From the NCBI RefSeq assembly GCF_010686655.1, contig NZ_JAAGVY010000003.1, forward strand, positions 124,001-188,000: a DNA stretch of 64,000 nt. The letters are read 5' to 3'. Shown here one piece after another: positions 4,052 through 7,503 of the stretch. This DNA comes from Cryomorpha ignava (lineage in GTDB: Bacteria; Bacteroidota; Bacteroidia; Flavobacteriales_D; Cryomorphaceae). Position 1 is the stretch's first letter. Every line of letters starts with the position of its first letter. Under the pieces are notes generated by a model. It had not been told where the DNA came from. It saw only the letters and a list, made by a program, of their open reading frames with translations, and searched no databases. A program made the position numbers and the translations under genes.

Positions 4052-4100
4052 AGCTTTTAGCTTTTAGCCTTTAGCTGTTGGCTTTTAGCTATTGGCTTTG
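4052..4100. repeat. Seven-copy degenerate heptanucleotide array (RGCYNTT)
   Basis: Seven consecutive 7-nt units: AGCTTTT, AGCTTTT, AGCCTTT, AGCTGTT, GGCTTTT, AGCTATT, GGCTTTG. The period is exactly 7. It lies in the 318-nt gap between the nitroreductase and fic genes; I see no gene or clear promoter in the rest of that gap (3989-4306). Confidence 0.8.
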
Positions 4101-4306
4101 CGCAGCAGCGTAAAAATCTAAAAATGCGAGGCAACAGCACAATGGAAATAGTTATCCTTATAAGGTAGAAATGAAATACCATAAAAGTAAGGAGGCAGAG
4201 CTAAATCGCGCGAGTGTGACGGTGGTGAGATTGGGGGTTGGTTCTTTTGTTGGTTACTCCTTCGTGGAATGGCTTTTTTGATTTAATTTTTCATCATAGA
4301 AAGTTT

Positions 4307-5437
4307 TCATTTCGATAAAATACTATAGAGTTCTAGGTTCAGGTAATAATGATGTCCACCAATTACCCTTTTTTCCAAGATCATCATATCGCATAATTTG
4401 TTCAGATAATCACGCGCCGTGTTTTCAGAATAGAGCCCCGCATCTACTAGGTGCTTCACTTTACTATAAGGTTGAGTAAAAAGCAATTCAATAAACTGAA
4501 CCGGCTTTTGGAAAGTGGTCTTATCCTTTATTACATAATCCAGAATTGAATCCTTTGCCGAAACTATTTCATTGATTTTATCAAATGTAATGTTTGATGT
4601 TTGCTCTATTGCTTTTAGCATAAACAGAAGCCATTCCTTCCAATTCCCCCTTTGAGTAACTCCAATTAATCCTGAGTAGTAATCTGTCTTGTTATCGAGA
4701 ATGTACTTGCTTAAAAAGAGAATAGGTAGATCTAATAGGTTTTTATTAGTCAAATAATTGATGTTCAATATTCTGCCTGTTCTCCCGTTTCCGTCTCGAA
4801 AAGGGTGAATAGCCTCAAATTGGTAATGAGAAATAGCCATTTTCAGCAAATAGTCAATCTTAAATTGGCCATCATCATTTAAAAAGTCAGTCAAATTTCT
4901 TAGCTTCTCTTGTATTACTTTTTGACCTTTTGGTGGTGTGTATATCACTTGTCCGGCATTTGGCCCGGTGCCACCCTGTTTTATGGTGGTATTCGTAAAA
5001 TCCGGTCGAATGTTATCTTTGGATTGTTTTATTTCCTGAAATACATTTATAAAATATTCCTGATCAAATTCCCCTTTTTTATCTAAGTAATGATAGCCCG
5101 ACCAAAGTGCTTCTCTGTAACGTAATACTTCTTTCGGTGCCCCCGTTAATTCAGAATCCTGGTCACTAAAAGCCTTATAAAGTTCATCGTCTGTGGTGAA
5201 AATATTTTCAATTTCACTTGATGCCTTTGCTTCTTGGAGGCTTATGGTATTGATCAGTATTCCTTGATTTGGGATCACAGCACTTCTTCCTTGCAGGCGT
5301 GCAAGAGCAGCTTTGGCATCTCCAAGTTTCTCTGCTATGTCAATAGTGCGATAGAGCTCTTCTTTAATTGGAAGCGGCGGCAAGTCGTTCCAGGGTGTAT
5401 TTCTATCAGGATTTATTTTGTAGAGAATTTCTGCCAT
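4307..5437 (-). CDS. Fic family protein AMP-transferase with C-terminal winged helix
   Basis: Adenylylates (AMPylates) hydroxyl side chains of target proteins in the cytosol. 376 aa. The N-terminal Fic_N-like region carries the inhibitory-helix motif S-x3-E-N (Ser73, Glu77, Asn78), the N-terminal (class II) arrangement known from Shewanella SoFic, so self-inhibition is expected. The active-site loop HPFRDGNGRTGR near residue 211 has every catalytic residue (H, D, G-N-G, R). The C-terminal ~70 residues look like a winged helix, as in SoFic-like proteins. It is a single gene preceded by a -7 box and a duplicated repeat element, which suggests self-regulation. No toxin or antitoxin partner is adjacent. 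The target is unknown. Confidence 0.92.
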   Translation of the reverse strand: MAEILYKINPDRNTPWNDLPPLPIKEELYRTIDIAEKLGDAKAALARLQGRSAVIPNQGILINTISLQEAKASSEIENIFTTDDELYKAFSDQDSELTGAPKEVLRYREALWSGYHYLDKKGEFDQEYFINVFQEIKQSKDNIRPDFTNTTIKQGGTGPNAGQVIYTPPKGQKVIQEKLRNLTDFLNDDGQFKIDYLLKMAISHYQFEAIHPFRDGNGRTGRILNINYLTNKNLLDLPILFLSKYILDNKTDYYSGLIGVTQRGNWKEWLLFMLKAIEQTSNITFDKINEIVSAKDSILDYVIKDKTTFQKPVQFIELLFTQPYSKVKHLVDAGLYSENTARDYLNKLCDMMILEKRVIGGHHYYLNLELYSILSK

Positions 5438-5469: not shown

Positions 5470-5477
5470 CAAATATA
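5470..5477 (-). promoter_or_regulatory. -7 promoter box of fic
   Basis: On the minus strand this reads TATATTTG, a full match to TAnnTTTG, 33 nt before the fic start codon. The -33 region falls on the first repeat box at 5493-5506. Confidence 0.5.
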
Positions 5478-5492
5478 GCAAAGTAAACTTTA

Positions 5493-5619
5493 GTAGACAT
5501 TAAAAAAGACTATTTCTAATGTTTACTCGCTTTTAGGCATTAAAAATACATGAAATTCAACATGTAGACATTAAAAAGTGTGAATTTTAATGTTTACTCC
5601 ATTTTTGGCATTAAAAATT
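5493..5619 (-). promoter_or_regulatory. Tandemly duplicated 71-bp operator-like element upstream of fic
   Basis: Two copies of a composite unit are offset by exactly 71 nt. Each unit has three boxes in alternating orientation: GTAGACATTAAAAA (5493, 5564), AATGTTTACTC (5518, 5589) and GGCATTAAAAAT (5536, 5607). That makes six related boxes, with the nearest on the expected -33 position of fic. No gene lies in 5438-5649. The arrangement suits a multi-site operator, perhaps bound by the winged helix of Fic itself; that binding is inference. Confidence 0.55.
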
Positions 5620-5649: not shown

Positions 5650-6408
5650 CTAAAGCTGAAAATAAAAATCATCAACATTCTGTCGATAATCTTCATACTT
5701 CTTCTTATTAAAAACAAAATACTGCGCGGGTTTATGGGGTACGCCAATTTGTTTTTCTTCCAGCGGGATGAGAAAATCTTTTTTCAAAATCTTTCTTCTG
5801 AAATTGCGCTTGTCGAGGTCGGTGCCAAGGATGGCTTCGTAAAGGTGCTTAAGCTGACTTAGCGTAAATTTTTCGGGGAGAAGCTCAAAACCAAGCGGTT
5901 CGTATTTGCTCTTAAACTTGAGCTCTTTCAGTCCGGCCTCAATAATTTCAAGGTGGTCAAAACCTAACGTTGGCAAGTCGTCAATATCGTACCAAAAAGC
6001 TTCTTTGGCAAAGCTGCTCGCGTGGAGCTCGTACTGATCTATTTTGATTAGCGAATAATAAGCGACTGTAATTACGCGTGCATCGGGCTCGGCTCGGATT
6101 GACTTTAACCATTGAAGGTCAGATTCTTTATTGAGTCTGTCGGGATTGCCAAAAGATCCGAATTGCTCCAGATAAATATTCTTCAAGCCTGTAAGCTCTT
6201 TGAGTACCCGGTCGGCTGCCTGATCGAGATTTTCATCAGTTTTTATCAAGTTTCCCGGAAGGGCATAAACCTTTTCAGATTCGGCGCCAGGTTCCTGCCC
6301 TCTATCTATCAATAAAACTTTCAGCTTCTCGCTATCAAACCCGAATATAACGCAATCTACCGATACATTCGGATTTAGTTTTGTTTCACTTACGGATTTT
6401 AAGCCCAT
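5650..6408 (-). CDS. Nudix-derived transcriptional regulator, NrtR/AraR family
   Basis: Two-domain DNA-binding regulator: a Nudix fold that senses a ligand (about residues 15-150) and a C-terminal winged helix (about 170-250) with the family NFRRK motif. The Nudix box is degenerate. The G-x(5)-E-x(7)-R-E-U-x-E-E-x-G-U pattern has one extra residue, the paired acids are largely lost (RVLKELTGL) and metal-dependent hydrolysis is doubtful. This is typical of family members turned into pure regulators, such as AraR of Bacteroides. The start at 6408 (MGLKSVSETKLNPN, 252 aa) sits just before the conserved VSVDCVIFGFD strand; an upstream ATG at 6453 would add 15 residues. It is divergent from pfkA across a palindrome, so control of sugar catabolism is inferred. 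Confidence 0.85.
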   Translation of the reverse strand: MGLKSVSETKLNPNVSVDCVIFGFDSEKLKVLLIDRGQEPGAESEKVYALPGNLIKTDENLDQAADRVLKELTGLKNIYLEQFGSFGNPDRLNKESDLQWLKSIRAEPDARVITVAYYSLIKIDQYELHASSFAKEAFWYDIDDLPTLGFDHLEIIEAGLKELKFKSKYEPLGFELLPEKFTLSQLKHLYEAILGTDLDKRNFRRKILKKDFLIPLEEKQIGVPHKPAQYFVFNKKKYEDYRQNVDDFYFQL

Positions 6409-6468
6409 ATATTGCGGATTTTCGTTCCTTTGTAGAGCCCGCGAAAATATCAATAAATTCTTGTTTTT

Positions 6469-6522: not shown

Positions 6523-7503
6523 ATGGGTTCAATTCGTAAAATTGCAGTATTCACTTCGGGAGGCGATGCGCCGGGAATGAATGCGGCAGTTAGAGCAGTG
6601 GTACGCACCGCAATTTTCAATGATTTACAAGTAGCCGGAATTTACCGCGGTTTTGAAGGCTTAATTGAAGGTGATATTGAGCCACTATCGGCTCGATCTG
6701 TAAATCATATTTTGCAACGTGGTGGCACTATTCTTAAATCGGCCCGAAGCAAAGATTTCAAAACAAAGGCGGGTCGTGCCAAAGCTTTTGAGAAATTAAA
6801 ATCGAATGGAATTGATGCCCTTGTGGGAATAGGAGGCGATGGAACCTTTGCAGGAGCGCATGTATTCAACAAAGAATTTGATTTTCCTTTTATTGGGATA
6901 CCAGGCACCATCGATAACGACTTGGTAGGAACAGATTTTACGATTGGTTTTGATACAGCATTGAATACTGTAATTGATGCCGTAGATAAAATTCGCGATA
7001 CTGCAGCCTCACACAACCGCCTGTTTTTTGTGGAAGTTATGGGGCGCGATGCCGGATTTATCGCGGCACATGCGGGTGTAGCTTCTGGTGCACTTGCTGT
7101 CCTTATTCCCGAAAGGAATATGTCAATAGCCGACCTGGTAGAACGCCTAAGCGAAGCGCGCCGACACAATAAAACGTCGAGTATTGTGATTGTGGCAGAA
7201 GGCGGTAAGAGTGGAAATGCCACTGAAATTGCCACTAAAGTAAATGAACTAGCTCCTTATTACGAAACGAAAGTTACTATATTGGGGCATATACAGCGGG
7301 GTGGAAGTCCATCGTGCTTTGATAGAAACCTGGCAAGCAGACTGGGTGTGGCATCCGTTGAAAAACTGATACAAGGAGAACGTGATTGTATGGTGGGAAT
7401 GATTAATCAAAAAGTTGTTTCAACCCCATTTGCGGAAGCTATATCAGACAAATTGACGATTGACCCCGAGCTGCTTAGAATTGCCGATATACTTTCAATT
7501 TAA
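6523..7503 (+). CDS. pfkA: ATP-dependent 6-phosphofructokinase
   Basis: Phosphorylates fructose-6-phosphate to fructose-1,6-bisphosphate, the committed step of glycolysis, in the cytosol. 326 aa, normal for the bacterial ATP-PFK. Seen: SGGDAPGMNAAVRA (from residue 12), the GGDGT nucleotide loop whose Gly marks the ATP-type rather than PPi-type enzyme, the catalytic GTIDND segment near residue 130, MGRDAG, and GHIQRGG near 255. It heads a tight run with the sugar kinase (21-nt gap) and pgmB. Expression is probably controlled through the palindrome over its promoter. Confidence 0.97.
   Translation: MGSIRKIAVFTSGGDAPGMNAAVRAVVRTAIFNDLQVAGIYRGFEGLIEGDIEPLSARSVNHILQRGGTILKSARSKDFKTKAGRAKAFEKLKSNGIDALVGIGGDGTFAGAHVFNKEFDFPFIGIPGTIDNDLVGTDFTIGFDTALNTVIDAVDKIRDTAASHNRLFFVEVMGRDAGFIAAHAGVASGALAVLIPERNMSIADLVERLSEARRHNKTSSIVIVAEGGKSGNATEIATKVNELAPYYETKVTILGHIQRGGSPSCFDRNLASRLGVASVEKLIQGERDCMVGMINQKVVSTPFAEAISDKLTIDPELLRIADILSI

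What the first reader, a model, noticed from the sequence alone, without database searches (positions are those of the whole stretch)
5470..5619. Six-box duplicated element controlling fic
A 71-nt composite unit with three boxes in alternating orientation is duplicated directly upstream of fic, and the first box covers the -33 position of a good -7 box. The Fic protein ends in a winged helix. This suggests a Fic enzyme that senses and represses its own synthesis through cooperative binding.
Basis: partly seen in the sequence, partly recalled or inferred. Interest (0 to 1): 0.55.

Follow-up and report, generated by a model that had tools for sequence, protein, structure and literature searches.

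The report
Fic toxin represses its own gene
A bacterial enzyme of a family linked to defence against viruses appears to switch off its own gene by gripping a regular row of DNA sites at its promoter, because changes in one amino acid of the enzyme go hand in hand with changes in the DNA sites across many relatives.

Summary
Two direct 71-bp units, each with three half-sites of TTTTAATG type, lie between fic and its upstream neighbour. The six half-site centres are at -174>, -152<, -134>, -103>, -81<, -63> from the ATG (spacings 22, 18, 31, 22, 18). The nearest covers the -33 region of a TANNTTTG promoter. Fic is a SoFic-type AMP-transferase (PADLOC SoFic, E 3e-99) with a C-terminal winged helix.

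The same lattice stands upstream of SoFic orthologues across Bacteroidota: an 18/19-bp inverted pair in 67 of 91, against 0 of 1820 shuffles. The half-site sequence changes between lineages together with one residue, 339, at the start of the recognition helix: N with TTAATGT, K with TTACCGT, V/T with TTAGTGT, A/G mostly with TTGATGT. No other column comes close (adjusted mutual information 0.77, next 0.20). Fic's own winged helix therefore most likely reads these boxes, and their place on the promoter implies autorepression.

An autorepressing Fic is known (CccR). In the papers searched I found no self-regulating SoFic, no 71-bp lattice and no one-residue code. Binding, repression, cooperativity and 'sensing' are untested.

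The parts
4307..5437 (-). fic: SoFic-type AMP-transferase, 376 aa; Fic_N, Fic (HPFRDGNGRTGR), inhibitory-type motif SSEIEN, C-terminal winged helix
4388..4426 (-). codons of the recognition helix, residues 338-350 by the model (ENTARDYLNKLCD); residue 339 (N, codon 4421-4423) is the proposed specificity residue, E338 and T340 invariant in 36 aligned sequences
5470..5477 (-). TATATTTG, Bacteroidota-type -7 element of the fic promoter (consensus recalled)
5493..5505 (+). unit 1, box A (GTAGACATTAAAA), centre -63, covers the -33 region
5514..5526 (-). unit 1, box B (GTAAACATTAGAA on the - strand), centre -81
5537..5547 (+). unit 1, box C (GCATTAAAAAT), centre -103
5564..5576 (+). unit 2, box A (GTAGACATTAAAA), centre -134
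5585..5597 (-). unit 2, box B (GTAAACATTAAAA on the - strand), centre -152
5608..5618 (+). unit 2, box C (GCATTAAAAAT), centre -174

Best explanation
The element is the operator array of a self-repressing SoFic enzyme. Fic, probably as the dimer reported for SoFic, inserts the recognition helix of its C-terminal winged helix (residues 338-350) into half-sites of the type TTT-TAATG-TTT. The half-sites are set on a fixed lattice (C> 22 B< 18 A> 30/31, period 70-72 bp). Box A lies on the -33 region; in many orthologues the next C box lies on the -7 element and the last box includes the start codon. An occupied lattice would exclude RNA polymerase and keep a toxic enzyme at a low level. Shown here: the lattice, its conservation, the covariation of residue 339 with the operator, and that the operator lies chiefly at fic. 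Inferred: binding by Fic itself, repression, cooperative filling of the lattice, and the physiological reason (keeping a defence toxin silent).
For: Conserved upstream of orthologues with fixed geometry: <> 18-19 bp pair in 67 of 91, >< 22-23 in 52 of 91; each 0 of 1820 first-order-Markov shuffles, and 0 of 68 regions downstream of fic. Operator class, called from DNA without use of the protein, against residue 339, 96 proteins after removing those at least 97% identical: N with TTAA in 67 of 71 (3 ties, 1 TTGA), K with TTAC in 9 of 9, V/T with TTAG in 6 of 6, A/G with TTGA in 7 of 9. Residue 339 has adjusted mutual information 0.769 with operator class; the next of 376 columns has 0.197 (92 rows). 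On a tree of residues 1-300 only, there are 6 independent pairs on supported branches; over 200 pairings the operator goes the same way in 5.8, the other way in 0.0, no difference in 0.2 (median p 0.031, range 0.031-0.125). Base 4 of the half-site pairs best with residue 339 (0.56, next 0.15); base 9 with 356 and 326 (0.31, 0.29) (columns 301-376). Residue 339 is the second residue of the recognition helix in the model. In 21 chosen genomes the exact inverted pair occurs at 21 places, 17 of them upstream of fic. The two neighbour genes of the window gave no hit in the 80 loci, the operator is there. CccR is an experimentally shown Fic autorepressor (PMC9755527); wild-type SoFic is toxic when expressed (PMC12249575).
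Against: No binding or expression was measured. SoFic DNA binding had not been demonstrated as of 2023 (PMC10628234). Exceptions to the code: L123 (A with TTAG), L059 (G with TTAA), L013 (N called TTGA). L123 is also the only non-N row among the loci fetched later that is not a near-copy of an earlier one, so the code outside N has no clean held-out confirmation. The call pattern was set after the first 80 loci had been looked at. Twenty-four of 91 orthologues lack a detected 18-19 bp pair with exact cores. Only 39 of 91 show TANNTTTG within 15-35 nt 3' of a half-site. The independent-pair test has few pairs. For the K class 7 genomes gave only 4 exact pairs, 2 at fic and 2 elsewhere. Among 37 more distant homologues only 14 have an inverted repeat at p up to 0.05 against 40 shuffles.
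Confidence: 0.86

Rival explanations
1. The boxes are operators of another transcription factor, for example the NrtR/AraR-like Nudix regulator encoded just upstream (5650-6453).
For: An NrtR-type winged-helix regulator is the adjacent gene and ends near the array.
Against: No tblastn hit (E up to 1e-8) of that regulator in the 80 loci, whose flanks are at most 2.5 kb, while the lattice is there. The operator sequence tracks a residue of Fic itself. Other regulators of the genome were not scanned.
Confidence: 0.04
2. Fic binds the lattice but mainly as a store or allosteric brake: DNA-bound dimers are held in an inactive (or deAMPylating) state, and repression is secondary.
For: In CbFic2 the authors propose that DNA binding through the C-terminal domain drives dimerisation and switches activity (PMC10628234); [quoted passage not shown]
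Against: A single chromosomal array would hold few molecules; the boxes are placed on the promoter as an operator would be. Not exclusive with repression.
Confidence: 0.2
3. The inverted repeats act in RNA (terminator of the upstream gene or a leader structure).
For: Each unit can form an A/U-rich hairpin (z -2.0 and -2.9).
Against: No terminator-like site found. The boxes lie upstream of the inferred start of transcription; their sequence covaries with a residue of a DNA-recognition helix; the lattice includes direct (>>) as well as inverted relations.
Confidence: 0.02
4. Chance or recent duplication without function.
For: The half-site alone is common in A+T-rich DNA.
Against: Conservation of geometry across families and in lineages with altered box sequence; 0 of 1820 shuffles.
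Confidence: 0.01

Closest known systems
CccR of Yersinia pseudotuberculosis (PMC9755527; section 10 part 1 and passages seen)
   Same: Fic domain plus C-terminal DNA-binding domain; binds inverted repeats near -35/-10 of its own promoter and represses it.
   Different: One pair of 10-bp repeats 26 bp apart against a 22/18/30 lattice of three or more boxes; the paper gives 29% identity over 45% to SO_4266 (SoFic), and CccR is described as a secreted effector.
SoFic single-gene anti-phage system (PADLOC PDLC03963; structures 3eqx, 3zcn; EcSofic PMC12249575: abstract, introduction, section 2.1 and passages seen)
   Same: Window Fic belongs to the family by sequence and fold (E 3e-99; Z 44.8), with invariant catalytic residues.
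   Different: The paper treats the C-terminal domain as a regulator of toxicity and names a downstream antitoxin AS1; words beginning HTH, winged or transcription do not occur in its main text. An AS1-like gene was not identified here.
CbFic2 of Coxiella burnetii (PMC10628234; abstract and passages seen)
   Different: Random DNA was used; no own-promoter operator appears in the passages seen.
Enzyme-repressors such as BirA (recalled, no call)
   Same: One polypeptide that is both enzyme and repressor of its own gene.
   Different: Unrelated enzyme and operator.

Membership tests
SoFic (class II Fic with SoFic-like C-terminal domain) | Sequence family | tested here: met
   PADLOC SoFic E 3.4e-99; Pfam PF13784, PF02661, PF21248 over cut-off. 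NCBIfam equivalog NF046030 matched at E 4e-108 but below its curated cut-off (361.5 of 550 bits), so a diverged member rather than the named equivalog.
SoFic (class II Fic with SoFic-like C-terminal domain) | Catalytic HPFxDGNGRxxR and N-terminal inhibitory SxxxEN | tested here: met
   Invariant in 36 aligned sequences: H211 P212 F213 D215 G216 N217 G218 R219 R222; S73, E77, N78. Motif names recalled.
SoFic (class II Fic with SoFic-like C-terminal domain) | Fold | tested here: met
   AlphaFold2 model, mean pLDDT 89.6; 3zcn Z 44.8, rmsd 1.8, 358 residues aligned.
SoFic (class II Fic with SoFic-like C-terminal domain) | Protection against phage | not testable with these tools
   Needs plaque assays.
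Fic autorepressor (CccR type) | Inverted repeats on the own promoter | tested here: met
Fic autorepressor (CccR type) | Direct binding and repression | not testable with these tools
   Covariation supports binding; no experiment.
Fic autorepressor (CccR type) | One repeat pair with a 26-bp spacer | tested here: not met
   Lattice 22/18/30-31 instead.
Two-gene toxin-antitoxin module | Cognate antitoxin gene in the operon | tested here: inconclusive
   One 41-codon ORF on the fic strand downstream (4057-4182) and a 23-codon ORF inside fic; conservation untested.

The most novel reading that the evidence does not exclude
SoFic proteins are one-protein toxin-and-repressor switches across phyla: the winged helix reads a promoter lattice through a simple code centred on one residue, and the lattice itself is the trigger. 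When a phage disturbs host DNA, transcription or SoFic binding, repression collapses and the toxin is made or released. Hints beyond Bacteroidota: a Fusobacteriota homologue (L139) with K at 339 has TTTACCA-type half-sites on the same lattice, five of seven matches at -104<, -86>, -64<, -35<, -17>; all four homologues with P at 339 (L148, L150, L153, L158; Pseudomonadota and Bacteroidota) have TGTAAA-type sequence upstream, by eye in L148 and L153.
Probability: 0.2. Interest if true: 0.85.

Novelty: new variant of a known kind. Interest (0 to 1): 0.64.

Why it matters
SoFic is a defence toxin whose wild-type form could not be cloned under a single lac operator, and the regulation of its toxicity is described as needing further work (PMC12249575). 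A conserved self-operator with a readable residue-to-base code gives a directly testable answer, a function for the C-terminal domain, and a natural set of possibly orthogonal repressor-operator pairs.

Tried and rejected
Neighbouring Nudix regulator as the binder: not found beside the orthologues. RNA structure or terminator. Wider regulon in the own genome: the exact inverted pair with 12-13 bases between the cores occurs at fic and once elsewhere (C9:69013), in a stretch without a clear gene start among ORFs of 60 codons or more; with looser spacing also at C25:46214. Search with the whole upstream DNA: only fic. Own second SoFic-like gene (C27:18429, L112): no lattice seen. A universal code over all SoFic relatives: not claimed; in 37 more distant homologues 14 had an inverted repeat with p up to 0.05, and of three distant K residues only L139 has a TACC lattice (L110 none, L112 a single TTACCGT). 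The tandem-repeat finder did not report the 71-bp duplication. Papers: listings showed no paper that I recognised as being on transcriptional self-control of SoFic, and passages of a 2026 review (PMC12894286) name CccR and not SoFic; several SoFic structure entries (9tb0, 9tc4, 9tch, 9tcl) appear without titles, so an account that I could not see may exist. Rows dropped: L070 (131-aa frame) before alignment; 24 near-identical proteins before counts; L010, L095, L129 (ties) and L067 (truncated); L032 (90 bp upstream) where 91 or 95 is given.

Full report
What is in the window. Between fic (4307-5437, - strand) and the Nudix regulator gene whose low end is 5650 lie two direct units 71 bp apart, 82% identical over 55 nt. 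Each has three half-sites. On the fic strand the six centres are -174>, -152<, -134>, -103>, -81<, -63>, that is spacings 22, 18, 31, 22, 18. A TATATTTG element fits the Bacteroidota -7 consensus TANNTTTG (consensus recalled) and starts at -40, so the last box covers the -33 region. The inverted pair is rare (2 in 64 kb with up to 3 mismatches, 0.32 expected), the single half-site is not.

The protein. Fic has Fic_N, Fic and SoFic-like_C domains, matches the PADLOC model SoFic at E 3.4e-99 and the NCBIfam SoFic equivalog below its curated cut-off. In 36 aligned orthologues (of the 80, with the window among the 36) the catalytic and inhibitory residues are invariant. The AlphaFold2 model (mean pLDDT 89.6) has a winged helix with recognition helix 338-350 and wing strands 354-359 and 362-367; the closest solved structure listed is SoFic of Shewanella, 3zcn (Z 44.8).

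Conservation. One search kept 80 of 307 related loci in the genome collection. Searches found relatives in 41 of 394, 16 of 399 and 13 of 395 genomes at their cut-offs (the own genome counted each time; a part became loci). With the window I aligned 120 proteins, 96 after removing those at least 97% identical. An inverted repeat of at least 10/12 stands within 200 bp upstream in 83 of 95, against 57 of 285 shuffled sequences. With class-specific cores the 18-19 bp convergent pair is present in 67 of 91, the 22-23 bp pair in 52, the 30-31 bp direct pair in 30, and the 70-72 bp direct pairs in 36 (>>) and 54 (<<); all are 0 of 1820 in shuffles and 0 of 68 downstream of fic. The class was chosen per locus from the same DNA, so the counts lean upward a little; the shuffles used the same class. 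In many orthologues the lattice runs over the promoter and into the start codon: TTA directly precedes ATG in 33 of 67 loci of the TTAA class and 4 of 7 of the TTAG class, in none of the 9 and 8 of the other two, and 34 of the 39 TANNTTTG elements found among 91 loci lie 22-23 nt from a half-site centre.

The covariation. The core of the half-site differs between lineages, and I called it by a pattern on the DNA. Residue 339 N goes with TTAA (67 of 71; 3 ties; 1 TTGA), K with TTAC (9 of 9), V or T with TTAG (6 of 6), A or G with TTGA (7 of 9; L123 TTAG, L059 TTAA). The rule was noticed, and the pattern set, on the first 80 loci. Of the 40 loci fetched later, 21 are not near-copies: 20 with N, of which 18 fit and 2 are ties, and one with A (L123), which has a non-TTAA box but of the V/T type. 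So the later loci confirm N and do not add clean tests of K, V or A/G. Over 92 rows, residue 339 has adjusted mutual information 0.769 with operator class; the next of 376 columns has 0.197. The neighbours E338 and T340 are invariant in the 36-sequence alignment. On a quick tree built from residues 1-300 the operator class needs 10 changes and residue 339 needs 11; the labels K and V each need two changes on supported branches; there are 6 independent pairs on supported branches, in which the operator goes the same way in 5.8 on average, never the other way (median p 0.031, range 0.031-0.125). Within the half-site, base 4 pairs best with residue 339 (0.56; next residue 0.15) and base 9 with 356 and 326 (0.31, 0.29) (only columns 301-376 compared). 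This is hard to explain unless this Fic domain touches these boxes.

One main target. In 21 chosen genomes with N-type orthologues (not all of those found) the exact inverted pair occurs at 21 places in 16 genomes; 17 places, in 15 genomes, are upstream of fic; the pattern read backwards gave 2 places. In the own genome it is at fic and at one other place (C9:69013). For the K class, 7 genomes gave 4 exact pairs in 3 genomes, two at fic (G547, G363) and two elsewhere (G766, G363). So the operator lies chiefly at fic; weaker sites elsewhere would be missed.

Distant relatives. Relatives at about 45% identity with helix KRQTAA carry TGTCGA/TCGACA boxes with 19 and 21 bp spacings in L104-L108. 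Among 25 plasmid-borne homologues fetched from named records, Ilyobacter (L139, K at 339) has seven TTTACCA matches with up to one mismatch, five of them at -104<, -86>, -64<, -35<, -17>. Of 37 more distant homologues (these 25 and L101-L112) 14 had an inverted repeat with p up to 0.05 against 40 shuffles, and some show none. I treat this as a lead.

Mechanism. The best reading is autorepression by occupancy of a lattice over the promoter. CccR is the experimental precedent for a Fic protein that represses its own promoter through its C-terminal domain (PMC9755527, section 10 part 1 and passages seen). SoFic is toxic: the authors of PMC12249575 report that wild-type EcSofic could not be cloned with one lac operator and was obtained under three (section 2.1), which fits a need for tight control. 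Dimerisation of EcSofic is reported there (passages), and the alternating half-sites fit a dimer, but which two boxes one dimer bridges is unknown. Cooperativity and any signal are inferences.

Novelty. A self-repressing Fic is known; a SoFic with a conserved 71-bp lattice and a one-residue specificity code was not seen in the listings of the searches of the held library. PMC10628234 states that SoFic DNA binding had not been shown to date, 2023 (passage). Recent SoFic structure entries could not be read.

Noticed in passing
G000:C27:18429-18656 (L112): A second SoFic-like gene in the same genome, helix VSRKTAAKYL, without a visible lattice upstream.
   Followed up: partly
genomes G364, G187, G266: Two SoFic paralogues, one close to the window's Fic and one of about 46% identity, lie about 1 to 14 kb apart on opposite strands; their upstream boxes would be expected to differ.
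   Followed up: no
window 5650-6453: NrtR/AraR-like Nudix winged-helix regulator directly upstream of fic, beside a phosphofructokinase-like gene (6523-7503, name recalled from its sequence); its target was not studied.
   Followed up: no
orthologous loci, start of fic: The fic start codon often lies inside the last half-site (TTAATG), so operator and initiation codon share bases: 33 of 67 TTAA-class loci.
   Followed up: partly
L088, L092: Two orthologues with N339 use TTAAGGT boxes and a different outer flank (CTAACCTTAAAA or close to it), so a second variable base is not explained by residue 339.
   Followed up: partly
G000:C9:69013-69039 (L161:1214-1240): A lone inverted pair with cores one base further apart than at fic, in the own genome, in a stretch without a clear gene start.
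   Followed up: partly
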